A stretch of 64,000 nucleotides of DNA. Source: Tulasnella sp. 424. Lineage: Eukaryota; Basidiomycota; Agaricomycetes; Cantharellales; Tulasnellaceae. Where the stretch lies: contig WSUB01000061.1 in NCBI GenBank assembly GCA_019633425.1, positions 124,001-188,000 on the forward strand, written 5' to 3'. Shown piece by piece: positions 12,783 to 32,006 of this stretch (position 1 is the first letter of the stretch; every line of letters starts with the position of its first letter). The notes under the pieces are model-generated. The model saw only the letters and a list, made by a program, of their open reading frames with translations. It ran no database searches and had not been told where the DNA came from. The position numbers and the translations under genes were made by a program.

Positions 12783-13134
12783 ATGTATCCACCAACGAGC
12801 GAACAGCCGACTTCTGGTCCACAACTACCATCGCTCAGATTTTCAAATGGCCAGATGATCACGGGCACTCAGCCGGGCCGATCTCCGAATATGTCAATGA
12901 CAATCCCCTCCCCTGCACAAGGAGAGCAAGGAAGATGGCAGACACTTAGATTGAGAGGAGGGGTGAGCAGGATTCATCCGAGTCTACATGGCGCTACAAC
13001 CATTTACATGAATGTTTCGTTATTGCCGGGGAAAGTGCACCGACGACTGCAGCTGCTGTGGAGGACGCATGGATTGCGGTTGCTCCTGCTGCCAGGGGAA
13101 TAAAGAATGCTGCTGGGGTAGATGGTGCTGCTAA
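12783..13134 (+). CDS. Small LRLRGG / cysteine-rich tail protein, plus copy 1
   Basis: Two exons, 12783-12962 and 13036-13134, with a 73-bp intron (GTGAGC...AAAG), 92 residues. Exon 1 encodes a Pro/Ser/Gln-rich, probably disordered segment starting MYPPTSEQPTSG and ending exactly in LRLRGG. Exon 2 encodes a 32-residue tail with 12 cysteines (CTDDCSCCGGRMDCGCSCC...), ending WCC-stop. The cysteine frame is chosen because it is conserved in all intact copies on both strands, whereas reading through the intron gives different, non-conserved ends. LRLRGG equals the last six residues of ubiquitin, but no ubiquitin fold precedes it. No signal peptide or membrane segment. Function unknown; metal binding by the tail or cleavage after GG are hypotheses. 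Confidence 0.72.
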
Positions 13135-13837
13135 AGTGTTGAAGAATTCTATACGTCTCGAAGGTTCGTATTCATATGCAGTCGACCCCTTTGTAACCCA
13201 ACTCATCTAGCCCATGGCCAACTATTTTGATAGGATTTTACTGTGACGCTCTGTAACGCCCCCTTTCACGACCATCCTTTGTCTCCTGATCAGTTGCATG
13301 TCATTTTTCTTTGTATTTGACTATAGTCCTATTATTTCGTGCATGGCGCTCCCTGTTGTTGTGACCTAATACCATCCAAGGACATCCAAATGTTCAAGCA
13401 ACAGAGGGAAGAACATGGCCCCAAGTATGTGCCAATACAACTTAGGAGTAATGGGATCACACATGTCTCTCGAGAGCGGCAGAATTAGATTCGTTTCCCC
13501 TTCATTCGATCGTGGTCACACCTGGCGGTTCTTCAAACGCTGTGATGGCGGAATTCAGGAGGGTAGCAGACAGAAGGGCTGGTTTAAGGCAGACCACCAA
13601 CTTAATTAACGGACCTTAGGGAAATCTGCTCACATTCTTATGATCAATTGGTCAAACTTTTATTTCCCAAAAGGTAGTTTTCGTATTCGCGCCCGTCACG
13701 GGTTACTCAAAGGGTTGTCACTGGTGTTACGTCATATGAACTCAGACACGTGCCTTCAACTCCTTAGTGCAGTTCTCCTTTTCTATCCACCACTCCCATC
13801 TTCTATACAATTCCAACCGTCCAGGCATAGGAAAGCC

Positions 13838-14364
13838 ATGTATCCACCAACTAGCGAACAACCGACTTCTGGTCCACAACTACCATCGCTCAGATTTTCA
13901 AATGGCCAGATGATCACGGGCACTCAGCCGGGCCGATCTCCGAATATGTCAATGACAATCCCCTCCCCTGCACNNNNNNNNNNNNNNNNNNNNNNNNNNN
14001 NNNNNNNNNNNNNNNNNNNNNNNNNNNNNNNNNNNNNNNNNNNNNNNNNNNNNNNNNNNNNNNNNNNNNNNNNTTCAAATGGCCAGATGATCACGGGCAC
14101 TCAGCCGGGCCGATCTCCGAATATGTCAATGACAATCCCCTCCCCTGCACGAGGAGAGCAAGGAAGATGGCAGGCACTTAGATTGAGAGGAGGGGTGAGC
14201 GGAATTGATCCGAGTCCGTAGCGCCACAATCATTTACATGAATGTTTCGTTACTGTCGGGGAAAGTGCACCGAAGACTGCGACTGCTGTGGAGGATGTCT
14301 GGATTGCGGTTGCTCCTGCTGTAACGGGCATAGAGACTGCTGCTGGTGCAGATGCTGCGCCTAA
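13838..14364 (+). CDS. Small LRLRGG / cysteine-rich tail protein, plus copy 2 (contains assembly gap)
   Basis: Start at 13838. Exon 1 is interrupted by a run of N (13974-14073). The 77 bases before the gap (13897-13973) are repeated exactly after it (14074-14150); joining 13973 to 14151 restores an exon of exactly 180 nt, as in copies 1 and 3, ending in LRLRGG at 14194. Exon 2 is 14266-14364, after a 71-bp intron, and encodes 32 residues with 14 cysteines (CTEDCDCCGGCLDCGC...), ending CRCCA-stop. The protein would be 92 residues. It sits in the middle of the tandem array. Apart from the gap no disabling change is visible. Confidence 0.68.
13974..14073. other. Assembly gap (100 N) with duplicated ends
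   Basis: The 77 bases on either side of the N run are identical (13897-13973 and 14074-14150). The simplest explanation is two overlapping contig ends that were scaffolded without being merged, so the apparent duplication inside exon 1 of plus copy 2 is not biological. Confidence 0.9.
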
Positions 14365-15027
14365 AATGGTGAAGCATTTTATACGCCTCCAAGGTTCGTA
14401 TTCATATACAGTCGACCCCTTTGTAACCCGACTCATCTAGCCCAGCTATTTTGATAGAATTTTACTGCGACGCCCTGTAATGCCCCCTTTCATGACCATC
14501 CTTTGTCTCCTGATCAGCTACATGCCATTTTCTTTTATTTGAAAAAGTTCCTAATATTTGTGCATGGCGCTCCCTGTTGTTGTGACCTAATACCTCTCTG
14601 CGTTGGCGTGTGGCATTGACAATCATTTGCTGGAATTTCCTATGTGCTTGTGCATCGACACTCTGAGCCAAAGTTCACCTCAGAGCCACGGGTCTCCGCG
14701 TCACTGATGGTGGCATACAGGAGGGTAGCAGACAGTCCGACCGGGGCTGCATCACCAACTCAAGGAACGGACCAAGCTTTGGGAAATCTGTTCACATTCC
14801 TCAATTGGTCAAACATTTATTTCCCAACACGTAATCCTCGTATTCGCGTACTACCAAGGTCCTCAAAGGGTTGTGTTATGTCATATGAATTCAGGCACGT
14901 GCCCTCAGCTCCTCGGCGTCCATGGTGTGCCTTCAGCTTCTCGGCGTCCTTGGTGCCGTTAGATCTCCTTTTCTACCCACCACTCCCATCTTCTATACAA
15001 TCCCGACCGTCCAAGCATAGGAAAGCG

Positions 15028-15374
15028 ATGTATCCAACAACGACAGAACAACCAACTTCTGCTCCCCAACTACCATCGCTCAGATTTTCGAATGGCCAGA
15101 TGATCACAGGCACTCAGCCGGGCCGATCTCCGAATATGTCAATGACAATCCCCTCCCCTGCACGAGGAGAGCAAGGAGGATGGCAGGCCCTTAGATTGAG
15201 AGGAGGGGTGAGCGGAATTGATCCGAGCCTATACCACTACGGTAATTTACATGAATGTTTCTTTATTGTCCGGGGAAGTGCACCGAAGACTGCGACTGCT
15301 GTGGAGGATGTCTGGATTGCGGCTGCTCCTGCTGCGACGGACATAGAGAAGGCTGCTGGTGCAGATGTTGCTAA
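15028..15374 (+). CDS. Small LRLRGG / cysteine-rich tail protein, plus copy 3
   Basis: Exons 15028-15207 (180 nt, 60 residues, MYPTTTEQPTSAP... to LRLRGG) and 15279-15374, with a 71-bp intron. The tail has 31 residues with 13 cysteines (CTEDCDCCGGCLDCGC...) and ends CWCRCC-stop, the same end seen in the minus-strand copies. An unspliced reading also stays open for 66 codons past RGG, but that version is not conserved in copies 1 and 2. The 5' and 3' flanks are shared with copies 1 and 2. Function unknown. Confidence 0.72.
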
Positions 15375-16056
15375 TATAAAACCTGTACGCTTCAAGGGTA
15401 CGTAGTCATATCCAGTCGACAAGTTGGTCCGCTTTGTAAACCAACTCATTATCTAGCCCGATATTCTGATAGGATTTTACTGCGATGGCTCCTTTCCATG
15501 ACCAGTTTCTGACCCCGATCTATTGCGTTCCATTCTGCTTGTATTCGACCGTAATTCTAAAGCATAGTGTGTTCTCCGTTGCAGTGACCTTAACCCATCT
15601 GAGCTTTAATGAGTCCCTAAACGCCAGAAAGCACAAAGAACCTCATTATGCGTCACGGAGATCAATCATTACATAAACTCCCTCTCGTTGGCCGCAGAAC
15701 TCAATGCGAAGTTTCCCCTTGATCAGATTCATATGAGTAGGTTTTAAGGCGTGCTTGTTATGTCTGATAACCCAATGGAATAAGAAGTCCAGTAGCTCGG
15801 ACGCGTATCAAATTACCTCATCTTACAGTATTGGGACAAGGTTGCTGAAAACGCACTACTCGGTCGTTGGAATCAATGTAGTCTGGTGTCAGTGCGGCCT
15901 CGTGAACTCCCCGGGGTTTCGATGAAACTTGACACTACGAACGCTTCCTTCTTCACTTTCTAGACCGATCTCCCTTTTTGAGATCTTCCCGGAATCGCAC
16001 TGTAATTACGATCACGACACCATCTCTAGGTGGATTTTTAGAATCTATAATTCCTC
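15375..16056. other. Spacer between array copies 3 and 4
   Basis: No gene is supported. The first 200 bases continue the 3' flank shared by the tandem units; the remainder is unique within the window. Confidence 0.4.
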
Positions 16057-16440
16057 ATGCCAGCTCACCCCTTCACGGCATCATCTAGACTGTCTCCCAA
16101 GAAAGGGATATGGACCGGCCAAGCCCCCACAAGCTCACCTTCCCTCTTCGTTATATTTGCACGAGAGAATGGTAACGAGAGTCCAACCAATCCCATCGCC
16201 GACGATGCTTACCGATGTCGCCGCCGCCCCTCAAACATAGCGGTCCGAAGAGCAATGGCAATCATTTAGGCTACGAGGAGGAGCTGTAAGCTCGGTTTTG
16301 TTATTTCTTTTTCGTATACTATTGGATCTTGGCTCACGATACATTTTGGCGTCCGACGAACCCATCTCCTCGCCCTGCAGTGTGCTGAATGCTGGCGAGA
16401 CTGCTGCAGGGCCCGTCAGCAGGACTTGGACGCCCGGGCG
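16057..16440 (+). pseudogene. Degenerate RLRGG-family copy (plus copy 4)
   Basis: Starts MPAHPFTASS, like the neighbouring copy at 16884 (MPDHTIPRTA). The frame then shifts near 16140 to one reading LHERMVTRVQPIPSPTM, meets a stop at about 16239, and only afterwards reads EEQWQSFRLRGGA just before a GTAAGC donor. A candidate second exon begins at 16381 with CAECWRDCC but then loses the cysteine pattern and runs on without the conserved stop. At least one frameshift and one stop separate the two halves of exon 1, so this is called a pseudogene. Confidence 0.6.
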
Positions 16441-16883
16441 TTATTTGTTTTTTTGGTCACTATCAGCTCTCTCTGCTGTGCAATTGGTCAGATACTGTAT
16501 GTTCAGAGAAATACGGTCGAGGGTAGTTCGGGGAGTTTCTTGGAGCAAATAACGTTGACTGAGGCTTGGATGCCCGTGTTGTTTCTCTCGAAGTGCCCGA
16601 TTGGATGTGAAGGTTGGTCGAAGAACTTTTTCAAAGTTATTGACGCATATGTGCGGCGAAAGATACTCTCAATACTCCCTATTTGAGCTGTGGCGAATCC
16701 CAAACGTTGCACGAAAGCCCGAGGATTGCCCGCCTCCGCACGTTAATCGTTGGTTTTCGTTCATTTGACCCTTCCTCCTATGAGAAAATAGTTCGTGCCC
16801 TCCTTGCCTTTTCATCATGAATACCTGTTGTTAATCGAAGAGGCAATATGGCTCGAATTCTATAAATTCCATACAGGTCTCCT

Positions 16884-17308
16884 ATGCCAGATCACACAAT
16901 TCCCCGCACCGCCCTCTCAGCGAGCGAAAATGTCACCAGCAGTGGAGCAGCAATACCCCGAATCCCGCCGCCTCTGATACTTAAAGGACGAACGATGATG
17001 AGGGCCCAACCGGGTCCATCATCATCAATGTCCATCAATCCCCGTCTTGCTCGAGAGCAGCAGTCCTGGCAGACCTTTCGACTACCAGGGGGGTTGAGTT
17101 CTAATCCAGACTCTTCTTCATTCGCTGGTTATCTGAGTTCTGACACTCGTAACTATAACCTATCGTGAATCTTGCGTTGTTACCCTTCATGCTGCATCCT
17201 CGTTTGGGCACCCTCGACACGCAGGGCGAATGTTGCGGAGATTGTTGCGGATGCTGCGATTGCGAATGCTGTCCGTGTAGCTGGTCCTGCCTCCCGTCCG
17301 GCCAATAA
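16884..17308 (+). CDS. Diverged RLRGG-family copy (plus copy 5), doubtful
   Basis: Exon 1 from ATG 16884 reads MPDHTIPRTALSASENVTSS and onwards to SWQTFRLPGG, so the usual arginine before GG is replaced by proline. A clear cysteine-rich exon lies at 17225-17308 (GECCGDCCGCCDCECCPCSW, then SCLPSGQ-stop), preceded by a CAG acceptor. However, the only GT donor next to the GG codons (17093) leaves two bases, which does not fit the phase of that acceptor. Either the splice pattern differs from the other copies or the gene is broken. Sixteen-odd codons of the tail are strikingly Cys-rich, so family membership is safe even if function is not. Confidence 0.5.
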
Positions 17309-17890
17309 AGGGAACAGGAAGCTAGTCATCGTGGAAGGTACGTGGGCCTCCCTCTATTTCAGCTCAGAGGATCATTCTGGGTCCATGTTTCACGACATGG
17401 ATGATACCCGACGTTGCTTCATATGATACGGTTGTGTTCTGCTGCGTTTCGACTATGACTCCCTGTATGCATCTCTTTGGGTTGTTAGGTCGCATCGACA
17501 GTGCCCTCGAAGCCATCCGATACATAAGTGCAAAGACGGAACAGACAAGGATAGAATTTGCAACCCGTTTCAGAGAAAGTAATGTAATAAATAGAAAAGA
17601 TGGTAGGGTAAAGCATATAACGAAGGAGGGGTATGGTAAGGGTTTTAATCATGACTCGAAAGCAAAATTGAGTAGGAAATCGTTGACAAGGAGCGAGAGG
17701 ATATTCGACAGCTGATGGCCACTAGGGCAAGGTAGATACAAGAAGAAAGCTAGGCATGACAACAGTTGAGCAAAACAAGGAAAGCGAAGTGAATAACGAA
17801 TGTGAGAGTCCATATGTCTAGGCCAGGAGATTTTGAATTTGAAATGAGAGACGAAAAAAAGAAATAGCAGGAGCTTGGACCAGTGCACCG
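17309..17890. other. Intergenic, no supported gene
   Basis: Between the last plus-strand family copy and the stop of the disordered-protein gene on the opposite strand. I see only short, unsupported open frames; an A/G-rich stretch occupies about 17570-17760. Confidence 0.4.
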
Positions 17891-19189
17891 TCAACCGAAT
17901 AGCGTGTCCTCCAAAGCGTCTCCCCAGTCGATGTCCTGAGACCCGGAGCTCTCAACGCTATCGGTGCTCCCAGACCTCTTTCGTCCAACCGAGACGAGTT
18001 TGGTCTTTCCGGTGGCCACCATCCTCTTGCACTGCTTCTTGAACCCAGCGCCAAACGTTGCCCTGGAATATTCGGGGCTAGTTGGGTCGAAAGTCCCGAC
18101 GACTGGGATGGACGTGGGTCGGTACTTCCGAGGGAGGCGGGCTGGGCCAGTGGTTGTATCAGAGCAAGTGGAGGGGGAGCTGGAGAAGTCGAGGAAGGAG
18201 TGGAGGTCGTCGTCCTCTTCAGGAGTTTCGATGCGGATGTCGGCTTCCTCCTCGTCGGACAAATCGAACGGATGGATGGACTCGGTCTCGGTCGGGGTTG
18301 CGGGGGTCGTCGTTGAGGCACTGGCCCCGGACTCGGAGGTGGGTAGCGAGGGACGCCTTCCTGGATCCTCCAACTCCAGGTCCAGATCCAGGTCCAAGTC
18401 TAACTCCAACTCCAACTCCCAAGGTTCGGGCGACTTGGGGACCGACGGCGGCGGAGGTAAAGGTCGGACCTGCCTAATCATGACTGGGGGCGAGGAATTT
18501 CCGGTCCGATTACAAGTGGACGTCGAAGCTTCGGGCACACGCGAGGCCCTATACACATCCCGAGGGTAGGGTGAGGATGGGAGTGTTGGGACTTGGCCTG
18601 CTGTGGGGACGGATATGCGTCGTATAGACTGGGATGGGTAGAGGGAATACGGAGGTGGAGGTGATGAAGGCTCGATGATGGATGGGGCTGGGGTGGGACG
18701 GCGAATGCTACTCGCCGCTGATGATGGGTTTGCCACGCGGAGTCGCGTTGCCGCGCGCCGTCGTTTTTTCGCTCCTTCAGGGGAAGGGGAGGGACGGGGT
18801 GATTCTGGCAGAGGAGCGGTACGGGGTGCTGGACCCACGTCGACCTGCGTTTCCATAAAACTTGACGAGGCTAGTGGTTGAGGGACTGTCCTTTCGGTCG
18901 ACCGCTTTGATATCGCTGAGTTCCTTCGATGCTGCTTTGCCTTGTGCATAGACGGTGATCCTTTTTCTAAGGTCGCCGACGAGGTTCTCCTGTGTGTTGA
19001 CGGCTGCACCGTGCTCGGACCAGCGGCAGGTGCAGTCGGAGCTGAGGAACTTGGACCTGGGCCCGCTTCGGCGTCTGTTGCGGGAGTCGAGTCGTAGTAT
19101 GACAGAAAGGAAAGCGTCACGCTATCTGACCGCTGATGAAACCGAGAGGCGATTTGCGCTTGGAAGAAGGGAGAGTGTTGGCCGGCCAT
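17891..19189 (-). CDS. Hypothetical disordered Ser/Pro-rich protein
   Basis: A single uninterrupted exon of 432 residues from ATG 19189 (MAGQHSPFFQAQIASRFHQR). Composition is Ser/Pro/Thr-rich throughout. Visible features are basic patches (AKKRRRAATRLRV), a PPPPYSLYPSQS stretch containing a PPxY-type motif that could bind WW domains of Nedd4/Rsp5-like ligases, an acidic alternating run LELELDLDLDLDLELED near residue 270, and a conserved-looking C-terminus (YSRATFGAGFKKQCKRM to DIDWGDALEDTLFG). No enzyme or membrane domain is recognised. It separates the plus- and minus-strand halves of the small-gene cluster. Basidiomycete genomes contain many regulators of this composition; function unknown. 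Confidence 0.75.
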   Translation of the reverse strand: MAGQHSPFFQAQIASRFHQRSDSVTLSFLSYYDSTPATDAEAGPGPSSSAPTAPAAGPSTVQPSTHRRTSSATLEKGSPSMHKAKQHRRNSAISKRSTERTVPQPLASSSFMETQVDVGPAPRTAPLPESPRPSPSPEGAKKRRRAATRLRVANPSSAASSIRRPTPAPSIIEPSSPPPPYSLYPSQSIRRISVPTAGQVPTLPSSPYPRDVYRASRVPEASTSTCNRTGNSSPPVMIRQVRPLPPPPSVPKSPEPWELELELDLDLDLDLELEDPGRRPSLPTSESGASASTTTPATPTETESIHPFDLSDEEEADIRIETPEEDDDLHSFLDFSSSPSTCSDTTTGPARLPRKYRPTSIPVVGTFDPTSPEYSRATFGAGFKKQCKRMVATGKTKLVSVGRKRSGSTDSVESSGSQDIDWGDALEDTLFG

Positions 19190-20216
19190 CGAGGTCGAAG
19201 GGGAAGCGCAGGCGGGAGGAGAAAGGGGAGGCGTGGCGGAGCGAGAAAACGAGGAGAAGAAGAGAACGAAGGGGGGTATTTGAGGGAAGCACGCTGAGAG
19301 GGCTTTTACGGTGTGAAGATGAGATCGGGAGAGCGGTTTTTAATGGAGGTGTCTATGTGTACAGCCAGGTCCGCTCGATCTCGATTTCTCAATCTCTTCA
19401 CCAGATCACAAAGGGCCACTTGAACCCCACCCTGGTTGCTTCTGTATTTATTTTCTACGGCGAAAAATAAGAAGGAGAAAAAACGGGTGCAGCGAAGAGA
19501 AAATGTCTAAAAGCGTTGCGAGCCCTTGCCCTGTGTCGCCAGCTCGACGGTGTAACGCCCCACGTGTACTTCATATATTTGGCGTCGAGCCAATGAGAAG
19601 CAAACACCCGGCATGCATTGACTCAGAACATCGTAATGAAGATGCCGACGAATAGACTGCTCTGACGATCAATCAAAGTGTTTTGCACGACCATGTGAGG
19701 TGTAGTCGAGGTCTCCGATGGTCGGAATGTGTACGAGGCGATTCCCGATTTGGGTTTAAGCCACCGGAAATACGCGCGATGCACAAAGGGAAGGGGTGAT
19801 GGTGAGAGCGCGTGAAACGCTCAGGGAACGTGGAACAGTGCACTGTTAGCATTTAGTACAAAGGGTTATCGAACATGGCAAGTGATGGCACGGGATGATC
19901 TGGGATAACTAACCCTTAACTGACGTTTAAAACGTATTCGCTATCAAGGGTGATGAGAAGCGAAGACAAAGGTCGGAAGCGGCCGAGCGTTGGAGAGTCC
20001 CGATTGGGTGCCCGACATCCCCAAAGCCACCGACGTCATACTTCCACATTCCACGCAGAGCATTCGATGGAAAAATATTGTCCTTTTTCTTTATTAACCA
20101 GGAAACAAGGGGAAGTACTTATGTTCAAGGGTGAGCGTGATACAGAGAGTACGGCTAATATGGTGCAAGGCGAATGGGGTGCGGGTCTGGGCATTCAAAG
20201 CGTGGCAACCGGCGAT
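19190..20216. other. Intergenic, no supported gene
   Basis: About 1 kb upstream of the disordered-protein gene and downstream of the first minus-strand family member. A purine-rich tract occupies about 19190-19290. No ORF here has recognisable content. Confidence 0.4.
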
Positions 20217-20499
20217 TAGAGGGGGCAGCAACAAGGAATGATATAACACGTTCCACCGCCCTATCCAATGGAATAGCGTTAATAGTCTTGCCAAGATATA
20301 TGAAATCTAGATGCTGAATTAGACTCACAGGGAGGGGAATGCAACCACCTCTTAATCTCATCGTCTGCTCACTTTCTCCTTTTTGCGCAGGTTGCATCGA
20401 CATTTGAGCACCCGCTGTAGGCTGTGTGGATATTACGGGTGCGGTAGCGTCTGACGGGTTGCGAGTGTGGGCAGCAGCGGGTCTTTGTGGTGGATACAT
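20217..20499 (-). CDS. Small MRLRGG protein with short CIPLP...CCC tail (minus copy 1)
   Basis: Exons 20499-20329 and 20261-20217, with a 67-bp intron (GTGAGT...GATAG), 71 residues. Exon 1 begins MYPPQRPAAAHTRNPS and ends in MRLRGGCIPLP; exon 2 adds GGGTCYIIPCCCPL-stop. It shares the MYPP start, the Gln/Pro/Ser-rich middle and the RLRGG motif with the other copies, but its tail is short and less cysteine-rich. It is not part of the 5.2-kb duplication. I take it as the most divergent, perhaps ancestral, member. A TATATA motif lies 72 bp upstream of the ATG. Confidence 0.65.
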
Positions 20500-20570
20500 C
20501 TGTCCAAATAGTGTTACGGGTGGTTGAGTTGGGGGTTAAAGGAATAGCTGTAAGATGTGCAGAACCTTCT

Positions 20571-20577: not shown

Positions 20578-21052
20578 GAGAAAAAAGTGGGAGCCAAGCG
20601 GTGATGTCTGTCGACGTCGTAAGTGGGGCTGTTAGCGGAGCGGTTGAAGCGTGCCGCCAAGTGACGGCGGTGGAATGACGTAGTCCGGGTGGCAGTGCCC
20701 ACGTGGCATTTAACTCCGTCCGACATATCCGTTAGCCGCCCGCCCTCTTCATCGCCGAAAAGTTTGCCGGGTGGAGAGCGGAACAACGTGGTTTAGGAAG
20801 CGAACCCTTCGGTTCTTGCGCTTCCCCGGTACCGGAGCAAGGCATGGCGTCCACGTGGCATGGGCTCGGGCTGAACCCTCCCTTCGCTAGGTCGGTTCCA
20901 CAAACCAAACTAAGATGTGTAAACGAGAAGCGCGTTAATGTCTCAAATTTAAATTGAAATGGGTATTCAATTGAGAGGAAAGTAGACAGGAAAAGGGACG
21001 CGGAGAAGTCTTTCGCAGAAGCCGGGCCCCCACTCTGGACAAAAGGCCCGCG

Positions 21053-21398
21053 CTAGCAGCATCCACACCAGCAAGAGTCGTCGCAACAATCGTCGCAAGA
21101 GCAACCACAGTCACCGCAGCAACAATCACAACTGTCAGAATCCTTTTCATTGTCGGACAAGAGCGATATTTTAGCCATCTGACTACATCTGGAATAGCGT
21201 CCTTTGACAACTCACGTAGCATCCGCCTCTCGGTCTCATAGCCTCGCCACGTGTCGACATGCCTTGAGAGCCAGATGGCTGGGTACTTGATACCATTGAG
21301 TTCATTGCAATGGATTGCGGGTATTGCGAGGACGAGCTCGGTGCCAAGCGAGCGGGAGATGGAGCACGGACACCTTCCGTTGTTGGCGAGTAGTACAT
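21053..21398 (-). CDS. Small RPRGG / cysteine-rich tail protein (minus copy 2)
   Basis: Exons 21398-21216 (61 residues) and 21142-21053 (29 residues plus stop), with a 73-bp intron. Exon 1 starts MYYSPTTEGVRAPSPARLAP and ends RGEAMRPRGGCY; exon 2 encodes DSDSCDCCCGDCGCSCDDCC and ends SCWCGCC-stop, 13 cysteines in 29 residues. The CWCxCC end matches plus copy 3 although exon 1 sequences differ strongly, which supports the chosen frame and splice. The leucine of RLRGG is proline here. A TATA-like box lies 132 bp upstream of the ATG. Function unknown. Confidence 0.72.
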
Positions 21399-21529
21399 CT
21401 TCAAAGAGCTTATGCGAGCAAAGGGTGAAATATATCGAGGGAAAGCGGACGGTGTCTCGAAAGTGCGTCTCGTACTGTGAGGTGGGGTAGCAAGATCAAA
21501 GCTGCCCGTCGAGCCCCCCACTGATCCGC

Positions 21530-21537
21530 TATAAATA
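21530..21537 (-). promoter_or_regulatory. TATA-like box of minus copy 2
   Basis: TATTTATA on the minus strand, 132 bp upstream of the start at 21398. The same motif is kept at a similar distance (108-132 bp) upstream of four related minus-strand copies, which argues for a real promoter element. Confidence 0.5.
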
Positions 21538-21540
21538 CAT

Positions 21541-23106
21541 TTCGTACACCAAGTTCTTAATGATGCGTCATCACCGCGGAGCGATAGAACCACTTTGCAG
21601 GTTGGAGAGGAATGTGGCCTCCCCTCGGACAGAATTTCCATGACGCACTTGGCCGCAGTGCAGAGTGGCGTTTCCAATTTTAGCACGGCTTCAGCCAAGC
21701 CGACCGTGGGCCACTGAACTCATCGAGGCCAAGGCCTTGCCAACTATTACAGTGCACTTGAATATGAGCGGAAAGATGTATTCTGAAGACTTGTCATCGA
21801 ACTGACGGGATTTGGTCGTTGAGTGCCATGTTCTCTGCACTAAGATTTCCACGGGCTTCGGAGATGTAGTTAGCCGAGCTCGCATCCCCCCATACTAAAC
21901 GACAGTCAAAGTAAACGAGAGTCGTCTGAGATAGCTGACGCTCGTTGAGGTGAAGGCATTTAAACTGGCTTGGGAGTGAGAGGTGGCAAGCAGATTGTGA
22001 CAGTAGCCCGGCATTCTTGGACCGCAGCGGTAGCGCAGCCAGCTTTTGAGAGGATACACGAAAGCCGGAGCCAGCATTTGTGGATCGAGTTCTCTCATTA
22101 CTTTATACGCAATGGGTATTGAGATTGCTCTTGGTGTCGTCGGGACGTTGCTTGCCGCGTGATGGATCATTGCGTGACAACTGTGAAATGGAACAGGATC
22201 TCAAGCCACCGTCACACCGGTGTGACTAAAGAGAAAATTGGTGAACAGGCGTGACATGATGACGTCAGCATTTTCATCCGCTGAATTGAACTCAATCATT
22301 AGCTCACCAGGGTTCGCTCGCCGGGTTTTGGAGAGGTCCGGTGGACCTGGCTTCTGCTTATCAATCACCAGGTGAAACGCGGCGGATGCCGCCTCCCAGG
22401 TCAACGAGTGAGCGCACGGGGTGCATTTTGAAATTGAGCAAGCCTAATGCAAAATTTTGAAACGCCACCCATTGCTCCTTCGAGGAGGGTCAACATGATT
22501 TCCCCAAGTCTGTATGGGGACCGCGGGCCGATTAGTTTTCCAACTCGCACGCAAAGTCGTTTCAGTTATGTATAGAATCTCGGGCTGCTTAGTGCACGGG
22601 TTTCTCGTTGTGAAACTGGCGTGTGACGATGGCGTTGCTAAGTCAGCTAGGGGTATTGTTCAGGTTCCCCGCTCCCTCCTTTTGGCCCAGGCACCTTACC
22701 TCCACCAACATGTACATCTCCATCGGACGCCACACATAAGTAGTATCGCCCAAAAGAACGAAATTTGAACTACCAGCAAATGCCGAAATTTTCTCCCCCT
22801 TACGTTAACGGAAGGAAAGGGGAAAACTTCTTCTGGGGATTCATATTAATGTTTTTAGCTCAGGATGTCGATCCACTCAAATGCCAAGGCACGCAAATCG
22901 GACGAAGTCCTCCCGACCCTGCACAATGCGGCGAGGAAAAAATCCCGACACCATGAAACCATCCCCGCCGGCACACCTTGCCGAACACACTCTCGCCTTC
23001 CTCTTCAGCTCCTCCTTCGCCTTCCTCCTCATCCCCTCCTTCGCCTCAAAGCACGCACCCTCTTATCTATCTTGTCGTTCCGCACCAGCCACAAAATTAC
23101 TTCCGT
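21541..23106. other. Duplicated intergenic DNA upstream of acyltransferase gene 1
   Basis: No gene is supported. Most of the stretch (for example 21590-21720 and 21830-22040) has a diverged counterpart at 26820-27300 in unit B. It contains the promoter of the acyltransferase-fold gene that starts at 23107. Confidence 0.5.
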
Positions 23107-25005
23107 ATGGTAAGCACCCAGTTTTTTCCCCCTTGGTGGCAAATTCCTGAGAGGGCTGATCACGACATTCATCTTTTTCAGACATCTCAACAACAACACA
23201 TAGACAGTGATGCGTTCCTCCAACCACGGACCTTTGAACGCCTCATGGGCGACACTGAGCTCTCGTACTATCTCCCATCGCGTGCAGACGGTGCCAACGA
23301 TATGTTCGTTCTTCGTGGCAGCTCCTGAATTCTACGTCGCCTTTTTTTTTAACCATTTTCTCGATCCGATCAGGTGCATGTATCTCGGGTTTCGTGCCCC
23401 CCAACGTCTATTCACTCCAAGACGCGTTCTTGCCACCTGGGCCCTTCTTCTGCTCCGCCATCCACTCTTAGCAGCCCGCGTTATCCCCCCTCCATCGAGC
23501 GGGTCCCCGTTTGAGACCGATTATTCCAGTGCCAGGTTCTCTTACGCCGCACCCACTTCACCTACCGATGCCATTCGGAAAGCCTCTGCCCTCTTAGAGT
23601 TCCAAAAAGGCGTCTCGAAGGATGAAATCTTCGATCGTTACCTTAACGGAAAGAGGCTACTAGGGGATAACCGCCTTTGCTACCTCATCTTTACAGAAAA
23701 CTCTCCAAGGACCGAAAATGATCAAGCCGAGTTTTCATGGTTTTTCGGCGCAGCTCATTTTATTTCAGATAGCGTGGCTTTCCATCAACTCGCAAACGAG
23801 TTTTTCACCATAATTGCTGGCACGGAGTTCGGATACGGATATACGGCCATGGATCTGGAAGAATTGGTTCGCAAAGAGTGGCAAACACGCTGGGGTTCCG
23901 GATCATCGGCGACCGTCGTTCTTCCCTCTCCTGTTGAGGAGAGACTACCCCCGGTGAGAGGAGCGTTCAGAAAGGCGGCGGGACGAGTCGACTTCCTAAA
24001 TAGCTCGAGGAAGGATATCGTGAGTTCATAGACCATCCTTCACTCTTCCTGACCCTCAATCTCATCGCATCGCATATCCGACAGGGTGGGCATGTATTAC
24101 CTCGAACAAAAGGCGCGAAGCGCAAGGCGGTCGTACGAACCATCGCTTTCGACGAAGCCACATCCCGAACGATCCTGCGAAAGTGCAAGTCTCAAGGAGT
24201 CTCATTCTCCAATGCGCTGTTTGCTCTCTGTGCTCTCGCTTGGACCCGCACGCAGCTTGAGCGAGGAGTGGAACTGCGCACAGATTTGCCAATGTGCGTT
24301 GCTCCCCGCTGCTATTAGTCAAAGGTACTAACGCGAGCCCTTCGATATCTTCATTCTAGAATGATGTACACGGCCCTCAACCTACGACCATATTTGCTGC
24401 CTTCCGACTCTTCGTATTGGAGCCCAGCTCTCGGATTCTTCAACATTATTCTCCCCTCATTTGTCCCTTCTACATCTCTCTCAGGTGATAAGACCGCATG
24501 GAAGGCTCTGCGCTCAACGTTCTGGCAGCGAGCCCGTTCCGCCAAGGCTCAAACTGCTCGAGCCACCAAGCATCCTTTGCTTGTCTCACGAGTTCGAGAG
24601 ACCGCTCGGCAACGAAGCGAAACCGCCAGGGCATTCGCTGTCGAAGATGATGCGAAGGAGCTCGGTCTGCCCATGCACCCTCGTACCTCGTCATCCACAC
24701 CAATTATCACACAGAAATCCACCGCTCCATCAGCAGCACTCTTTGGTCTGTCCCAACTAGGCAGTCTGGACGGGATTTATATCCACAAGGACTATCCATC
24801 CGTTCAATTGCACTGGCACGCACCGGCAACTCGTATCCGTCCTGGAGGGTTCTTGCTGTTTTCGTACACCTTTGCCGGGAAGCTCTACCTGAATCTTGGG
24901 TACGACGTTAATGGTTTCAAGGATGGCATCGTGGAAGCATGGTGGAAAGACCTGCAGGGAGGCGTCGAGGAGTTCCTAATTGGCAAACCTGCAGCGCGTT
25001 TGTAG
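23107..25005 (+). CDS. Condensation/acyltransferase-fold protein (alcohol acetyltransferase-like), copy 1
   Basis: Exons 23107-23109 (ATG only), 23182-23303, 23374-24019, 24085-24293 and 24360-25005; phases agree and give about 541 residues. The protein resembles the CoA-dependent acyltransferase/condensation-domain superfamily common in mushrooms: ERLMGDTELSYYLPSR near the N-terminus, FRAPQRLFTPRRVLATWALL, an HxxxD active-site motif in AHFISDSVAFHQLANEF near residue 170, and the C-terminal SAALFGLSQLGSLDGIY and LFSYTFAGKLYLNLGYDVNG. In this fold the histidine acts as general base in acyl transfer; substrate unknown. The start codon stands alone in exon 1 directly before a GTAAGC donor, an arrangement conserved in copy 2. 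Flanked by two RLRGG-family genes on the opposite strand. Confidence 0.78.
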
Positions 25006-25342
25006 TTGCATTTCAAGGGAACAGTGGACGGATCAAGGAGAAGAATATTTTATTGGTGATCTGTCGGTCGGATACTCTGCAGTAATTATTTCGCCTTGCC
25101 ATAGATTTCATTTGTAACGTTATGTTTTGCGGTAAATTTATTTTGCTTTCGGCTCTTTGGCTCGATCCATACTAGTCGTGAATAAATGGCAACAAGTCAA
25201 GGCAAGTACAACATAACACGTCCATTTTTACAAAGTAAGCAGTCTCAAATGTGAAAGGGAGCGCATTTAGGGCTCTGGTAACTACTTTTATAGTCCAATA
25301 TGGTTACATTCCAAGGACGTCCAGTTCGCCGTCATGGGAGTT

Positions 25343-25689
25343 TTAGCAGCACGAACACCAGCAAATATCATCGCAATTTCCCCAATCACGGCACCCGCAA
25401 TCGAAGCAACAGCAGCTGCAGTTCTCATAGTCCTTCCAAGTTGTCTCGGCATGAGCATTTTGGTGGCAGGATCGTATAACCACTAATCACTCACACAGCA
25501 ACCCCCTCCTCTGAGTCTGATCGCTTCGCCGCGAGTGGTCATGCCAGGGACCTGGGTAGGTTGGGTGTCGGTGACGTTGGGCTTGAGCGCTGTCATCGAC
25601 ATGATCTGGGTATATGTTGAGGAAGAGACGGGCGCCAAGCGCGCGGGTGATGGAGGGCGAACACTTTCTGTGGTAGGGGAGTAGTACAT
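25343..25689 (-). CDS. Small RLRGG / cysteine-rich tail protein (minus copy 3)
   Basis: Exons 25689-25495 (65 residues) and 25423-25343 (26 residues plus stop), with a 71-bp intron (GTGAGT...TATGAG). Exon 1 starts MYYSPTTESVRPPSPARLAP and ends RGEAIRLRGGGCC; exon 2 reads NCSCCCFDCGCRDWGNCDD and ends CWCSCC-stop, 11 cysteines in 26. The acceptor GAG is unusual but is shared with minus copy 5. The gene lies convergent with, and about 340 bp beyond, the acyltransferase-fold gene. Function unknown. Confidence 0.72.
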
Positions 25690-25812
25690 TCTTTGGAGAA
25701 TGGTGGTATTTTCCAATGGAACGGAACCAGGGGGGGGGGGTCTTCGAGTGGAGCGAAAAGGTTAACGAGGGGAGATGGAGGAAGAGAGGCGAATGGAAAA
25801 CGCAAGGTGGTT

Positions 25813-25820
25813 TATAAATA
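25813..25820 (-). promoter_or_regulatory. TATA-like box of minus copy 3
   Basis: TATTTATA on the minus strand, 124 bp upstream of the start at 25689. It lies in a block also present upstream of minus copy 5 and, in part, copy 6 (sequence around AACGCAAGGTGGTTTATAAA on the plus strand). Confidence 0.5.
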
Positions 25821-26295
25821 CATGCGTGTACTGCCCCCAGGCATCATTGTGGGCTGTACATTCGAGTTGTGCGCTCTGGGATTGGACGGCTTACGGCGCA
25901 TGTGTCCAAAAATAGACTAGGCCACGCTGCCGAGCAGAGCCATCGAACGGGTCACTACCGTCAACACGGCTCTCGGAGTCCAATAGGCAAGTATAATCTC
26001 ATCCCTTCACGTAATGATAACGTGCAAAATGTTGTATCCACCAGCCAGAGGACCAGAAAAGAAATGCAATCCGAAGGCTCTGCTTGGGGTTCGATTGCAA
26101 CGCAAAAGGCTTCAATAGGAGCTTTATAAGGTTATAGTGCCAAGCCGTGATCTGGTTCATGTGGGTTGGGTCGGTTCCACAAACCAAAGTGAGATTTTCA
26201 AACGAGAAGGGTATTCAACACAGAGGAAGGTAGAGCAAAAGGGACACGGAGAAGTCTTTCGCGGAAGCCTGGCCCTACACTGAACAAGGCCCACA

Positions 26296-26641
26296 CTAGC
26301 AGCATCCACACCAGAGAGAGTCGTCGCAACAAATCGTCGCAAGAGCAACCATATTTATCGCCGCAGCAATCACAATTTCCATAATCCTTTTCATTGTCGG
26401 ACAAGAGCAATATTTAGCGATTTGACTACTTCGGGAATAGCCTGCTTGGAGAACTCGCAGAGCATCCGCCTCTCAGTCTCATAGCCTCGCCACGTATCGA
26501 AACGCCTTTAGAGCCGGATGGCTGGCTACTGGGGACCATTGAGTTCATTGCAATGGATTGCGGGTATTGCGAGGACGAGGTCGGTACCAAGCGAGCGGGA
26601 GATAGAGCACGGACACCTTCCGTTGTTGACGAGTAGTCCAT
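26296..26641 (-). pseudogene. Frameshifted RLRGG/Cys-rich copy (minus copy 4)
   Basis: Counterpart of minus copy 2 in unit B. Exon 1 from ATG 26641 reads MDYSSTTEGVRALSPARL and keeps RGEAMRLRGGC, but the donor is changed from GTGAGT to GCGAGT. In the tail an extra base (GATTTGTTGC against GATTGTTGC in copy 2) shifts the frame after GCSCDD, so the conserved CWCGCC-stop is lost and the reading runs on for more than 30 codons. The original stop is still visible out of frame at 26296-26298. Both changes point to loss of function. Confidence 0.7.
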
Positions 26642-28106
26642 CTTCAAAGAGACTACTCGAGCAAATGATAAAATATATCGAGGGAAAGTGGGCGGTGTCT
26701 TGAAAGTGCGTTCCGTACTGTGAGGTGGGGTTTCGAGAACGCTGTCCGTCGAGCCCCCCACTGATCCGCTATAAATACATTTCGTAGGCCAAGATCTTAG
26801 TGACGCGTTATCACCGCGGAGCGATAGAATCCCTTACAGGTTGGAGAGGAATGTGGCCTCCCCTCGGACAGAATACCCATGACGCACTTGGCCGCAGTGC
26901 AGAGTGGCGTTTCCAATTTTAGCACGGCTACAGCCAAGCCGACGGTGGGCCACTGAACTCATCGAGGACAAAGCCTTGTCAACTATTACTGTGCACTTGA
27001 AGATGAGGCAGACGGTTTATTCTGAAGACATGTCATCCTGCGGTTTGACTCGAACCGACGAGACTTGATCGTTGAGTACTAGTGCAATGTTCTCTGCACT
27101 AAGATTTCCACGGGGTTTGGAGATAAGGTTAGCCGAGCTCGCATGCCCGCCGTACTAAATCTCGGTTAGAGAGTCGTCCGAGATGGCTGGTGCTCGTTGA
27201 GATGAGGCATTTAAACTGGCTGGGGAGTGAGAGGTGGCAACCAGATTGTGACAGTAGCCCGACATTCTTGGACCGGAGGGCTATCGCAGCCAAGCTTTTG
27301 CCAACTACGAGATCTCACGCCACCGTCACATCGACTGGAGGTGGAGCTCGGGTGACAGCTGAAATTTAGGTAACATGAAGGGACATGACGTTAGCTTTCC
27401 CAGACACTCTTGTGCCATTTTTAGCCATTGAATTGAACTGCAAAATTCTGAAACGCTAATCATGGATCCGTCCCGGAACCGGTCCCGAGGACCGTCGACA
27501 TGGTTTCCCTGAAGTCTAGTGCTGCCAGCGAAGTCGCTTCGATTGCCTTTTTTTGTCCCTGGGAACAAGATTCCACGCTCTACTGGCCAATCAGGTTGTC
27601 CAAAACATCGAAGTGTTCGAAGCATCTACCCCAAACGGGACAAGGCTTTCCGGGGACCGCCGCGGACGTCGACGACCTCTCCCCCACTACATATGTACAT
27701 CTCTATCGAACGCTACATATATCACGCCCAAAGGCCGAAGTTTTCTCCCCTCGGTCAGAACGACTCCATCCTCGTTAACAAAAGGAAGGGGGAAACACCT
27801 TTTGGGGATCTTTTTTTAGCTCAGGATGTCGATCGACTTAGACGCCAAGGCACGGAAGCAGGATCGTCGAGAACCTGCAGAACGCGACGAAAAAAAAAAA
27901 AAAAAACAGTCACCATAAAACACACGCATCCACACCTCGTTCAGCACCCAGGCCTTCCTCTTCGTCTCCTCCTTCGCCTCCTCCTCGCCTCAAAGGCAAC
28001 GCGCACCCTCTTATCTATCTGCTATCAAATTTCCTCTTTATTTTTCTGCTCTAGCTTGTCCTTGAAAAGGTCTGTCGTTCCGTACCGGCCACAAAATTAA
28101 TTCCAT
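26642..28106. other. Duplicated intergenic DNA upstream of acyltransferase gene 2
   Basis: Holds a TATA-like box (26770-26777) for the broken minus copy 4 and a run of about 18 A residues near 27890. Otherwise it is the diverged counterpart of 21541-23106; no gene is supported. Confidence 0.5.
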
Positions 28107-30187
28107 ATGGTGAGCATCCAATTTTTACCCCTTGGTGGCAAATTCCAGGAGGGCTGATGATGACGTTCACCATTTTCAGGCATCTCAACAACAACACATA
28201 GACAGTGATGCGCTCCCCCAACCACGGACCTTTGAACGCCTCATGGGCGACACTGAGCTCTCGTACTATCTCCCATCGCGTGCAGACGGTGCCAACGATA
28301 TGTTCGTTCTTCANNNNNNNNNNNNNNNNNNNNNNNNNNNNNNNNNNNNNNNNNNNNNNNNNNNNNNNNNNNNNNNNNNNNNNNNNNNNNNNNNNNNNNN
28401 NNNNNNNNNNNNACGCCTCATGGGCGACACTGAGCTCTCGTACTATCTCCCATCGCGTGCAGACGGTGCCAACGATATGTTCGTTCTTCATTGCAGCTCC
28501 CGAGGTCTTTGTTGCCTTTGTTTGACCATTTTCTCCGATCCAATCAGGTGCCTATATATCGGGTTTCGTGCCCCTCAACGTTTATTCACTCCAAGACGCG
28601 TTCTTGCCACATGGGCCCTTCTTCTGCTGCGTCATCCACCGATAGCAGCTCGCGTTATCCCCCCTCCATCAAGCGGGTCCCCATTTGAGACCGATTATAC
28701 AAATGCCAGGTTCTCTTACGCCGCACCCACCTCGCCTATTGATGCCATGCGGAAAGCCTCTGCCCTCTTAGAGCTCCAAAAGGGCGTCTCGAGGGGTGAA
28801 ATCTTTGATCGTTACCTTAACGGAAGGAGGCTACTAGGGGAGAACCGTCTTTGCTACCTCATCTTTACAGAAAACTCTCCATCGACCGAAAAGGATCATG
28901 CCGAGTTTTCATGGTTTCTCGGCGCAACTCATTTTAGCTCAGACAGCGTGGCTTTCCATCAACTCGCAAACGAGTTTTTCACCATAATTGCTGGTACGGA
29001 AATGGGATATGTATACACGGCCACGGATTTGGAAGAATTGGTTCGCAAAGAGTGGCAAACACGCTGGGGTTCCGGATCATCTGTGACCGTCGTTCTTCCT
29101 CCTCCTGTTGAGGAGAGACTACCCCCGGTGAGAGGAGTGTTCAAAAAGGCGGCGGGACGAGTCGACTTCCTGAATAGCTTGAGGAAGGATATCGTGAGTC
29201 CACAGACCACCCCTCACTCTTCCTGACCCTCAATCTCATCGCATCGCATATTCGACAGGGCGGCCATGTATTACCTCGAGCAAAAGCCGCAAAGCGCAAG
29301 ACAATTGTACAAACCATCACTTTCGACGAAGCCACATCCCGAACTATCCTGCGAAAGTGCAAGTCTCAAGGGGTCTCGGTCTCCAATGCGCTGTTTGCTC
29401 TATGCGCTCTCGCTTGGACCCGCACGCAGCTTGAGCGAGGAGCGGAACTGCGTACCGATTTGCCAATGTGCGTCGCTCCCCGCTGGCTACTCGCTATCAG
29501 TCAAAGGTACTAACGCAGACGATTCGATGACCTCACCCTAGAATGATGTACACCGCCCTCAACCTACGACCGTACTTGCGGCCCTTCGACTCTTCGTATT
29601 GGATCCCAGCTCTCGGATTCTTCAACATTGTTCTCCCCTCATTTCTCCCCTCTCCATCTCTCCCAGGTGATAAGACCGCATGGAAGGCTCTGCGCTCAAC
29701 GTTCTGGCAGCGAGCCCGTTCCGCAAAGGCTCAAAGTGCTCGGGCCACTAGGCACCCTATGCTTGCCACACGGGTTCGAGAGATGGCCCGGCAAAGAAGC
29801 GAAACCGCCAGGGCGTTTGCTGTCGAAGATGATGCGAAGGAGCTCGGTCTTCCCATGCGCCCTCGTAACCCGTCTTCCATGCCAACTATCACACGGAAAG
29901 CCACCGCTCCATCAGCAGCACTCCTCGGTCTGTCCCATCTCGGGAATCTAGACGGGATTTATATCCACAAGGACTATCCATCTGTTCAATTGCACACGTT
30001 GGCACCGGCAACTCGTATCCGTCCTGGAGGGTTGATCCTGTTTGCGTACACCTTTGCCGGGAAGCTCTACCTAAATCTTGGGTACGACGTTAATGGTTTC
30101 AAGGATGACATCGTGGAAGCATGGTGGAAAGACCTGCAGGGAGGCGTCGAGGAGTTCCTGATTGGCAAACCTGCCGCGCGTTTGTAG
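28107..30187 (+). CDS. Condensation/acyltransferase-fold protein, copy 2 (contains assembly gap)
   Basis: Paralogue of the gene at 23107 in duplication unit B, with the same exon plan: ATG at 28107-28109 directly before a GTGAGC donor, then an exon starting at 28180 (ASQQQHIDSD). The HxxxD motif is present as THFSSDSVAFHQ. The last exon ends FLIGKPAARL-stop like copy 1. A run of N (28314-28412) splits exon 2; the 78 bases on each side (28236-28313 and 28413-28490) are identical, so joining 28313 to 28491 restores the gene. No disabling mutation was seen otherwise. Likely an acyl transfer enzyme of unknown substrate; the two copies differ by scattered substitutions. Confidence 0.75.
28314..28412. 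other. Assembly gap (99 N) with duplicated ends
   Basis: The 78 bases before the N run (28236-28313) are repeated exactly after it (28413-28490), the same pattern as the gap at 13974-14073. Read as unmerged overlapping contig ends rather than a real duplication in the gene. Confidence 0.9.
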
Positions 30188-30519
30188 TTGCCTTCCAAGG
30201 GAACAGAGGACGGATCGAGGAACAGATCATTTTATCGGTTATGTGCCGGTCGGATACTCTGTAATAATTATTTTGTCTCGAGAGAGACTTGATTTGTAAC
30301 GTTATGCTTCGCAGTAAATTTATTTTGCTTTCGGCGCTTTGGCTCGATTCATGCTAGTCAGGAATACATGGCAACAAGTCAACGCGAGTACAACATGTCC
30401 ATTTTCCCAAAATAAACGGTCTCTGAATGTGAAAGGGAGCGCATTGAGGGTTCTAGTAACTAATTTGTAGTCCAATATGGCTAGATTTCTAGGACGTCCA
30501 GTTCACCGTCATGGGAGTT

Positions 30520-30866
30520 TTAGCAGCACCCACACCAGCAAGAATCATCGCAACATCCCCAAGATTCGCATCCGCAATCGAAGCAACAGCAGCTGCAGTT
30601 CTCATAGTCCTTCCCAGTTGTCTCGACATGAGCATTTCGGTGGCAGAATCGTATAACCACGAATCACTCACAAAGCAACCTCCTCCTCTGGGTCTGATCG
30701 CTTCACCGCGAGTGGTCATCCCAGGGACCTGGGTAGGTTGGGTGTCGGTGACGTTGGACTTGAGCGTTGTCATCGACATGGTCTGGGTATATGTTGAGGA
30801 GGATACAGGCGCCATGCGCGCGGGTGATGGAGGGCGAACACTTTCTGTGGTAGGAGAGTAGTACAT
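30520..30866 (-). CDS. Small RPRGG / cysteine-rich tail protein (minus copy 5)
   Basis: Exons 30866-30672 (65 residues, MYYSPTTESVRPPSPARMAP to RPRGGGCF) and 30600-30520 (NCSCCCFDCGCESWGCCDD to CWCGCC-stop, 12 cysteines in 26), with a 71-bp intron. Duplication partner of minus copy 3. An unspliced frame also stays open for another 60 codons, but it lacks the Cys pattern and is closed in copy 3 by a stop soon after the donor, so the spliced form is preferred. Convergent with acyltransferase copy 2. Confidence 0.72.
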
Positions 30867-30984
30867 TCTTTGGATAACGATGGTACTTCTGAATGGAAGG
30901 AGGGAGGGGAGTTCTTCAAGTGGAGCGAAAAGGTTAACGAGGGGAGATGGAAGAAGAGAGGCGAATGGAAAACGCAAGGTGGTT

Positions 30985-30992
30985 TATAAATA
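30985..30992 (-). promoter_or_regulatory. TATA-like box of minus copy 5
   Basis: TATTTATA on the minus strand, 119 bp upstream of the start at 30866, in the same sequence context as the box of minus copy 3. Confidence 0.5.
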
Positions 30993-31658
30993 CACGCGTG
31001 TACCGCCCTCGGACATCCTTGGGAGTTATTACGAGTCGTGCGCTCTGGGATTGGACGGGCTTACGGGGCATGTGCCCAAAAATAGACCATGCCACGCCGC
31101 CGAACGCCATCAAACTGGCCACCACCATGCGAAAAACGGCTCTCAGAGTCCGACAAGCTCATCGCTTCCCGTAATAATAATAACGTTAAAATCCGTGTCA
31201 AAGGTTCTCTCGACCAGCCAGAGGACAGGAAAAGGATGCAATCTAAAAGCTCTACTTGAAGTGCGACTGCCATGCAAGGGGCTTCAACAGTGGCGTTATA
31301 AGGCCATGGTGTCAAGCCGTGATCCAGTTTTGGAAGTTCTGGATTGGGCGACTGACGACGCATTCGTAGACGTGATGCAAGGAAACGGCGGAGGGATGGA
31401 CTCGGGCTTGGTCACGTAAGACACCGAGACTCGCGACGACCCTCTGTTGGACTTCGAGATATTGTAGATGGAGTTTGTGATTGTTAGCTTTATGGTCATT
31501 TATTTCGTTGTCGGTGTTAGTCTCGCTTCGTTTCTCTGAGCTTGGGATTACAGGGGAGTAAGCCCCAGGGAAGTCACTCCAAATACAACTCATAAAGGTA
31601 ACTAAATACACAGTCCAGAACCTCTGTGAGAGATTGTTTGGCTGCGATGGGAGGCTTA

Positions 31659-32006
31659 TCAACATCCACACCAGCAAGAGCGGTCGCGACAATCAGCCGT
31701 AATACATCCACAATTGAAGCAACAGCAACTGCAGTCCTCCTTTCAAGTTATGTCAAAAGCCAGTCGTTACCATACTGTTCGCTTCAGAGGAAAAAAGAAC
31801 GAATTACTCACATAGCAAAATCCTCCTCGAGGTCTCATTGCCTCGCCACGAGCGGTCATTGGGGAGACCTGGGCAGGTTGGGTGTCGGCAACGTTAGACG
31901 TGCGTGCCGCCATCTGCATTGTCTGGGTATACGTCGAAGAAAGGGATGGTGCAAGGCGCGCAGGTGATGGTGGTCGGATGCCCTCTGTTGTAGGAGAGTA
32001 GTACAT
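31659..32006 (-). CDS. Small RPRGG / cysteine-rich tail protein (minus copy 6)
   Basis: Exons 32006-31812 (65 residues, MYYSPTTEGIRPPSPARLAP to RPRGGFCY) and 31739-31659 (EDCSCCCFNCGCITADCRD to SCWCGC-stop, 10 cysteines in 26), with a 72-bp intron (GTGAGT...GAAAG). It lies outside the 5.2-kb duplication and is more diverged from copies 3 and 5, yet keeps exon lengths, RGG position and the CWCGC end. That conservation is the best evidence within the window that the family is under constraint. Confidence 0.7.

What the first reader, a model, noticed from the sequence alone, without database searches (positions are those of the whole stretch)
12783..32006. Clustered family of small two-exon genes: disordered N-terminus, RLRGG motif, cysteine-rich tail
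Eleven copies on two strands (starts 12783, 13838, 15028, 16057, 16884 plus; 20499, 21398, 25689, 26641, 30866, 32006 minus). Exon 1 is 57-70 codons and ends at or within a few codons of R[LP]RGG; exon 2 of the typical copies is 26-32 codons, one third to one half cysteine, ending C-W-C-x-C(C)-stop. Exon-1 sequence differs strongly between plus and minus groups while motif, intron position and tail are kept. I know of no named family with this architecture.
Basis: partly seen in the sequence, partly recalled or inferred. Interest (0 to 1): 0.9.

Follow-up and report, generated by a model that had tools for sequence, protein, structure and literature searches.

The report
Clustered fungal genes with cysteine-rich tails
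A fungal genome carries a cluster of very small duplicated genes, each coding for a floppy protein that ends in a tail nearly half made of cysteine; the cysteines are preserved better than their neighbours, which suggests, without proving it, that the tail grips metal ions inside the cell.

Summary
A strict two-exon finder recovers 8 of the 11 listed copies and nothing else in the window; 200 shuffles give none. Six copies are intact with long Cys-rich tails, one (13838) is interrupted by an assembly gap, one (20499) has a short tail with few cysteines, and three (16057, 16884, 26641) look decayed or lack a standard splice site. In the 8, the intron is phase 0 and 62-73 bases long. dN/dS is 0.16-0.52 in the 4 of 7 pairs where it could be computed, and tail cysteines persist in diverged minus-strand copies while TGT/TGC alternate and linkers change. 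Three further relatives lie on two other contigs. No significant Pfam, NCBIfam or PDB match was found. The protein database and paper library gave no answer, so presence in other fungi was not tested. Exon 1 looks disordered and not ubiquitin-like; the long tails are acidic without a membrane segment. Best guess: cytosolic metallothionein-like proteins (0.4); main rival: lipid-anchored peripheral membrane proteins (0.25).

The parts
12783..13134 (+). copy p12783, intact: exon 1 12783-12962, intron 73 bases, exon 2 13036-13134 (stop included), 92 aa, 12 Cys
13838..14364 (+). copy p13838 with a 100-N run in exon 1 flanked by identical 77 bases; exon 2 14266-14364; 14 Cys
15028..15374 (+). copy p15028, intact: exon 1 15028-15207, exon 2 15279-15374, 91 aa, 13 Cys
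16057..16450 (+). decayed copy: start and RLRGG in different frames, tail unlike the others; end approximate
16884..17308 (+). diverged copy with RLPGG; Cys-rich stretch 17225-17308, but no standard donor in the right phase at the family position
20216..20499 (-). diverged copy m20499: exon 1 20499-20329, exon 2 20260-20216, short tail, 5 Cys in all; its exon 1 finds no other copy in a genome search, so membership rests on motif, intron position and place
21053..21398 (-). copy m21398, intact: exon 1 21398-21216, exon 2 21142-21053, 90 aa, 14 Cys
25343..25689 (-). copy m25689, intact: exon 1 25689-25495, exon 2 25432-25343, 94 aa, 13 Cys
26300..26641 (-). decayed copy (partner of m21398 in the block duplication); donor position and tail frame not kept; low end approximate
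30520..30866 (-). copy m30866, intact: exon 1 30866-30672, exon 2 30609-30520, 94 aa, 13 Cys
31659..32006 (-). copy m32006, intact: exon 1 32006-31812, exon 2 31739-31659, 91 aa, 11 Cys
20948..26152 (.). block holding m21398, an HxxxD-containing gene and m25689, duplicated as 26196-31324 in three matching stretches (84.8, 72.5 and 87.4% identical) with an unmatched part between the first two
12483..15485 (.). tandem triplication that made 12783, 13838 and 15028

Best explanation
A lineage-expanded family of small proteins, probably not secreted: a disordered S/T/P/Q-rich carrier of about 60 residues ending in R[LP]RGG, joined by a conserved phase-0 intron to a soluble, mostly acidic tail of 26-32 residues holding 10-14 cysteines. 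Most likely the tail forms a thiolate cluster with Cu(I), Zn(II) or Cd(II) in the reducing cytosol, as metallothioneins do, and gene number and promoter set the dose; the exon-1 part would control stability or location. Shown: gene structure, duplication, constraint on protein and cysteines, lack of a hydrophobic segment in the long-tailed copies. Inferred: transcription, cytosolic location, metal binding, stress role.
For: Cys is kept in preference to other residues between diverged minus-strand copies: 11 of 13 Cys sites versus 6 of 16 other sites for m21398/m25689, with 4 TGT/TGC changes; one-sided Fisher P 0.013-0.049 in the five such pairs, which are not independent. The seven long tails have CxC and CC, 10-14 Cys in 26-32 residues, 4-8 Asp/Glu and at most 2 Ile/Leu/Val/Met/Phe. 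No 19-residue window is membrane-like (highest 0.09-0.81 in six long-tailed copies, 1.26 in m20499); the same scan shows no signal-peptide-like start. TATTTATA lies upstream of five minus copies, with a shared CCAAT element in three, which fits regulated genes. Tandem and block amplification is usual for dose genes such as metallothioneins (recalled).
Against: A Trp in all seven long tails and some Tyr/Phe are unusual for metallothioneins (recalled). CxC is not significantly above shuffled tails (P 0.15-0.51). Between plus and minus groups 3-9 Cys sites differ per pair, so Cys spacing is not fixed. No metallothionein profile or PDB match. Relatives elsewhere (RLRGGTDSCQSCWSCFG on C411, RLRGGCSCGRV on C405) and 20499 have few Cys, some beside hydrophobic residues, which fits lipid attachment better. 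In the closest pair, exon-2 dN/dS is 1.15, on only 12.2 synonymous sites. No transcript data.
Confidence: 0.4

Rival explanations
1. Lipid-anchored peripheral membrane proteins: Arg residues of R[LP]RGG next to a Cys cluster form a site for S-acylation by DHHC acyltransferases (or the CC, CxC and CCA ends are prenylated as in Rab proteins), tethering a disordered protein to a membrane.
For: The common core of the members, including the few-Cys relatives on C411 and C405 and copy 20499, is Arg-Gly-Gly followed by Cys, some beside hydrophobic residues. The seven long-tailed proteins end in CC, CxC or CCA, as Rab-type prenylated proteins do (recalled), though with so many Cys this is easily met by chance.
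Against: Long tails carry 4-8 acidic residues, hardly any aliphatic residues and no membrane segment; 10-14 Cys is far more than an anchor needs. No CYSTM profile match in the genome (weak control). Rab prenylation needs the Rab domain (recalled), absent here.
Confidence: 0.25
2. Disulfide-rich secreted or unconventionally exported small proteins (effector-like or antimicrobial).
For: Small, Cys-rich, clustered and duplicating, with birth and decay.
Against: No signal-peptide-like hydrophobic start in the seven models scanned; dN/dS below 1 in the 4 of 7 pairs where it could be computed (0.16-0.52); Cys doublets and a variable Cys number (11-14 per long-tailed protein) do not suit a fixed disulfide fold.
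Confidence: 0.12
3. A processed precursor: R[LP]RGG is a cleavage or conjugation site like the ubiquitin C-terminus, and the Cys tail is released as a peptide.
For: GG lies 0-5 codons before the exon junction in the 8 models.
Against: No ubiquitin fold: single-sequence model of one exon 1, pLDDT 59, pTM 0.13, no secondary structure; no ubiquitin profile match; L is replaced by P in 3 of the 8 models.
Confidence: 0.06
4. Not functional genes: chance open frames in repeats.
For: Three of eleven copies look decayed or doubtful.
Against: 0 of 200 shuffles give a hit; dN/dS 0.16-0.21 at dS about 1.1; Cys-specific constraint; conserved splice sites and upstream elements.
Confidence: 0.03

Closest known systems
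Metallothioneins (recalled; no paper could be read)
   Same: Small, no hydrophobic N-terminus, very high Cys density with CxC and CC, tandem amplification
   Different: About 60-residue disordered N-terminal part with R[LP]RGG, Trp in all seven long tails, no profile match
CYSTM small cysteine-rich membrane proteins (Pfam PF12734; traits recalled)
   Same: Short polar N-terminus rich in P/Q/Y, Cys-rich C-terminus
   Different: No PF12734 match in the genome at E<=1; long tails acidic with no membrane helix
Basidiomycete lipopeptide mating pheromone precursors (recalled)
   Same: Short, clustered, multi-copy genes on both strands
   Different: No aliphatic CaaX box in the seven long-tailed copies (20499 ends CCPL); no pheromone receptor among the 20 of 76 open frames scanned

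Membership tests
Metallothionein | Small protein with very high Cys fraction in a dedicated region, CxC and CC motifs | tested here: met
   Six long tails 0.38-0.45 Cys; CxC and CC present in all seven, but CxC not significantly above shuffle
Metallothionein | Few or no aromatic residues in the Cys region (recalled) | tested here: not met
   Trp present in all seven long tails, plus Tyr/Phe in some
Metallothionein | Match to a curated metallothionein profile or solved metallothionein | tested here: not met
Metallothionein | Binds several metal ions; metal-induced expression | not testable with these tools
   needs protein and RNA data
CYSTM | PF12734 profile match | tested here: not met
   0 matches in the whole genome at E<=1, exon-wise search; of 14 control genomes 1 rang, none over the cut-off, so the control is weak; no match in the proteins scanned
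CYSTM | Cys-rich transmembrane helix | tested here: not met
   Highest 19-residue hydropathy 0.09-0.81 in six long-tailed copies
Ubiquitin-like proteins | Beta-grasp fold before GG | tested here: not met
   Low-confidence model without secondary structure, from one sequence without alignment; no profile match
Mating pheromone precursor | C-terminal CaaX box with aliphatic middle | tested here: not met
   Seven long-tailed copies end in CC, CxC or CCA; 20499 ends CCPL
Mating pheromone precursor | Nearby STE3-type receptor gene | tested here: inconclusive
   None among 20 of 76 open frames scanned
S-acylated or prenylated protein | Thioester-linked or thioether-linked lipid | not testable with these tools
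   needs acyl-biotin exchange or prenyl labelling

The most novel reading that the evidence does not exclude
A new kind of modular metal-binding protein in fungi: a disordered carrier with a ubiquitin-like RLRGG end, without a ubiquitin fold, is joined at an exon boundary to an exchangeable Cys tail, and the RGG site controls release or attachment of that tail.
Probability: 0.06. Interest if true: 0.8.

Novelty: new variant of a known kind. Interest (0 to 1): 0.45.

Why it matters
If the metal reading holds, this would be an amplified metal-handling gene family that none of the curated libraries used here recognises, with a clear modular design (motif, intron, tail) and natural variants, intact and decayed, side by side. 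It gives a tractable set for testing how Cys-dense tails evolve. If the lipid reading holds, it would be an unusual cysteine-rich membrane anchor.

Tried and rejected
CYSTM was rejected on the genome-wide profile search (weak control) and on hydropathy. A ubiquitin-like fold was rejected, a single-sequence, low-confidence model. Mating pheromones were disfavoured by the C-terminal ends. A genome-wide look for CWCxCC codons gave 14 places, 5 of them the family's own tails; the pattern read backwards gave 26, so the motif alone is not specific. The 9 other places (L026-L034) gave no hit with the strict two-exon finder, both strands; plus-strand frames of 600 bases of 5 of them were read. A codon pattern for RLRGG followed by GT gave 7 places, none in the window, and its control 5; those 7 loci gave no two-exon gene. 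Weak exon-1 matches on C168 (E 0.83), C57 (E 0.19) and C73 (E 2.3) were not counted as relatives; their loci gave no finder hit. The search with 20499's exon 1 found only itself. A tail-only protein search found only 2 of the known tails, so it is insensitive. A test of CxC excess was not significant. NCBIfam gave one match at E 0.12 in 1 of 7 members, Pfam one at E 0.18 in 1 of 4, and PDB one at E 2.1; I take these as chance.
Full report
What is there. The window is 64 kb of contig C407 of a 46.8-Mb genome of 448 contigs. With canonical GT-AG introns, 8 of 11 give a protein with a Cys-bearing tail after R[LP]RGG (coordinates). In all 8 the intron is phase 0, 62-73 bases long, and lies 0-5 codons after RGG. 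The three others are 16057 (start and motif in different frames), 26641 (family donor position not kept, tail over two frames) and 16884 (no GT-AG pair joins exon 1 through RLPGG to the whole tail at the family position). Copy 13838 holds 100 N with identical 77-base flanks, which looks like an assembly artefact. A similar 99-N run with 78-base flanks lies at 28314-28412.

Chance. It gives 0 in the rest of the window, 0 in 83,191 bases of 16 other loci, and 0 in 200 shuffles of 12301-32200, and 0 in 12 loci in a second run (4 of the 12 were already among the 16). The 16 loci include L023 and L044, which hold the few-Cys relatives described below; the strict finder does not see those.

Origin. 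The plus group 12783/13838/15028 comes from tandem duplication of roughly 1-kb units (76-88% identity). The minus group comes from a block 20948-26152 duplicated as 26196-31324 (stretches of 84.8, 72.5 and 87.4% identity, part of the block unmatched), which carries m21398 / HxxxD-containing gene / m25689 and their partners 26641 / second gene / m30866; m32006 is a more diverged relative. Single-sequence exon-1 searches of the genome do not join the plus and minus groups. A profile comparison of four minus with two plus proteins aligns the second halves (55 columns, 44% identity, probability 98%, E 2.9e-13 for that one comparison); shared Cys richness inflates this. Copy 20499 shares the MYPP start with the plus group and a TQP...MRLRGG region with the minus group by my reading, but its exon 1 finds nothing else in the genome. 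16884 and 16057 join the plus group only weakly (E 0.01-0.06). So 'one family' is an inference from motif, intron position, place and tail.

Selection. Nei-Gojobori estimates for 7 pairs: m25689/m32006 dS 1.14, dN/dS 0.21; m30866/m32006 dS 1.17, dN/dS 0.16; p12783/p15028 0.40; m25689/m30866 0.52; the 3 pairs with m21398 had saturated dS. In m25689/m30866 exon 1 is 0.27 and exon 2 is 1.15; exon 2 has only 12.2 synonymous sites, so this speaks weakly against constraint on linkers there. In the tails of diverged minus copies, cysteines persist: m21398/m25689 keeps 11 of 13 Cys sites (4 by TGT/TGC change) against 6 of 16 other sites; m21398/m30866 12 of 13 against 8 of 16; m21398/m32006 10 of 12 against 6 of 14; m25689/m32006 9 of 11 against 6 of 15; m30866/m32006 10 of 11 against 8 of 15. 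One-sided Fisher P is 0.013-0.049, pairs not independent. Against this, the 12 comparisons between plus and minus groups differ at 3-9 Cys sites each, partly perhaps by alignment shift, so spacing is not fixed across the family.

Upstream. TATTTATA lies about 105-135 bases before the start in 21398, 25689, 26641, 30866 and 32006, and TCCAATCCCAG in 25689, 30866 and 32006 (read from the 220-base upstream prints, which showed 10 of 11 copies, 16057 not among them). Plus copies lack a clear TATA.

Relatives. Exon-1 searches of the own genome find three members outside: two on C411 (196451 and 199842, the second not intact) and one on C405 (63108, minus). One C411 copy joins the minus group at E 7.4e-4, the other at E 0.004 from its own side, and C405 joins C411 at E 8.8e-16. 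They share a YSP start, a middle block and R[LP]RGG. Their 2-6 cysteines come before a GTAAGT donor; exon 2, where it can be modelled, has no Cys (acceptor not certain for C411). Thus the constant core is 'disordered part - R[LP]RGG - cysteines - nearby phase-0 intron', with the Cys on either side of the intron, and the long Cys-rich exon 2 is a feature of the cluster. Counts are lower bounds because the search is exon-wise. No significant Pfam, NCBIfam or PDB match was found. The large protein database was off, so distribution in other fungi is unknown. I faintly recall small Agaricomycete proteins with similar RGG-plus-Cys ends; this is unverified and comes from no call.

How it may work. 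Exon 1 is 42-48% P, S, T and Q, with net charge +2 to +3 in the seven models measured. The model of one exon 1 has pLDDT 59, pTM 0.13 and no secondary structure (one sequence only), so it is probably disordered and not a ubiquitin fold. The six long-tailed copies measured have no window of membrane-like hydropathy, and their tails have net charge -1 to -8; tails hold 10-14 Cys. In the cytosol such a soluble, Cys-dense, acidic tail most plausibly binds metal as a thiolate cluster, like a metallothionein; that is the reading I commit to at 0.4. The few-Cys relatives and 20499, with some Cys beside hydrophobic residues, fit lipid attachment better (0.25). CxC excess, which would favour the metal reading, is not significant.

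Verdict. It works perhaps like a metallothionein but is not filed as one, because profile matches and the lack of aromatic residues were not met. Its novelty cannot be settled without a search of fungal proteomes.

Noticed in passing
window 23204-25002 and 28132-30187, + strand: Duplicated spliced gene between the small genes, with an HFISD stretch resembling the HxxxD motif of CoA-dependent acyltransferases (recalled); the two frames scanned from the first copy gave no Pfam match. No match to it at E<=1 in the 10-kb stretches fetched around the C411 and C405 relatives.
   Followed up: partly
window 13974-14073 and 28314-28412: Two N runs (100 and 99 bases) whose flanks repeat 77-78 identical bases, probably failed assembly joins.
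   Followed up: partly
C407:114001-124000 (L024) and window 967-2933: Four stretches of L024 are 75-85% identical to a window stretch that encodes an Armadillo-repeat protein, so tandem copies.
   Followed up: no
window 132-806, 39213-39940, 43396-43520: A repeat shared between the left end and the region around a fungal-type protein kinase gene (Pkinase_fungal, 40530-42374).
   Followed up: no
window 4595-6533, 8572-9099, 60742-61698: Conserved neighbours by Pfam: Est1-like, Mre11-like and CDC20/Fizzy-like genes.
   Followed up: no
window 17894-19339, - strand: A 482-codon open frame with no Pfam match lies between the plus and minus groups.
   Followed up: no
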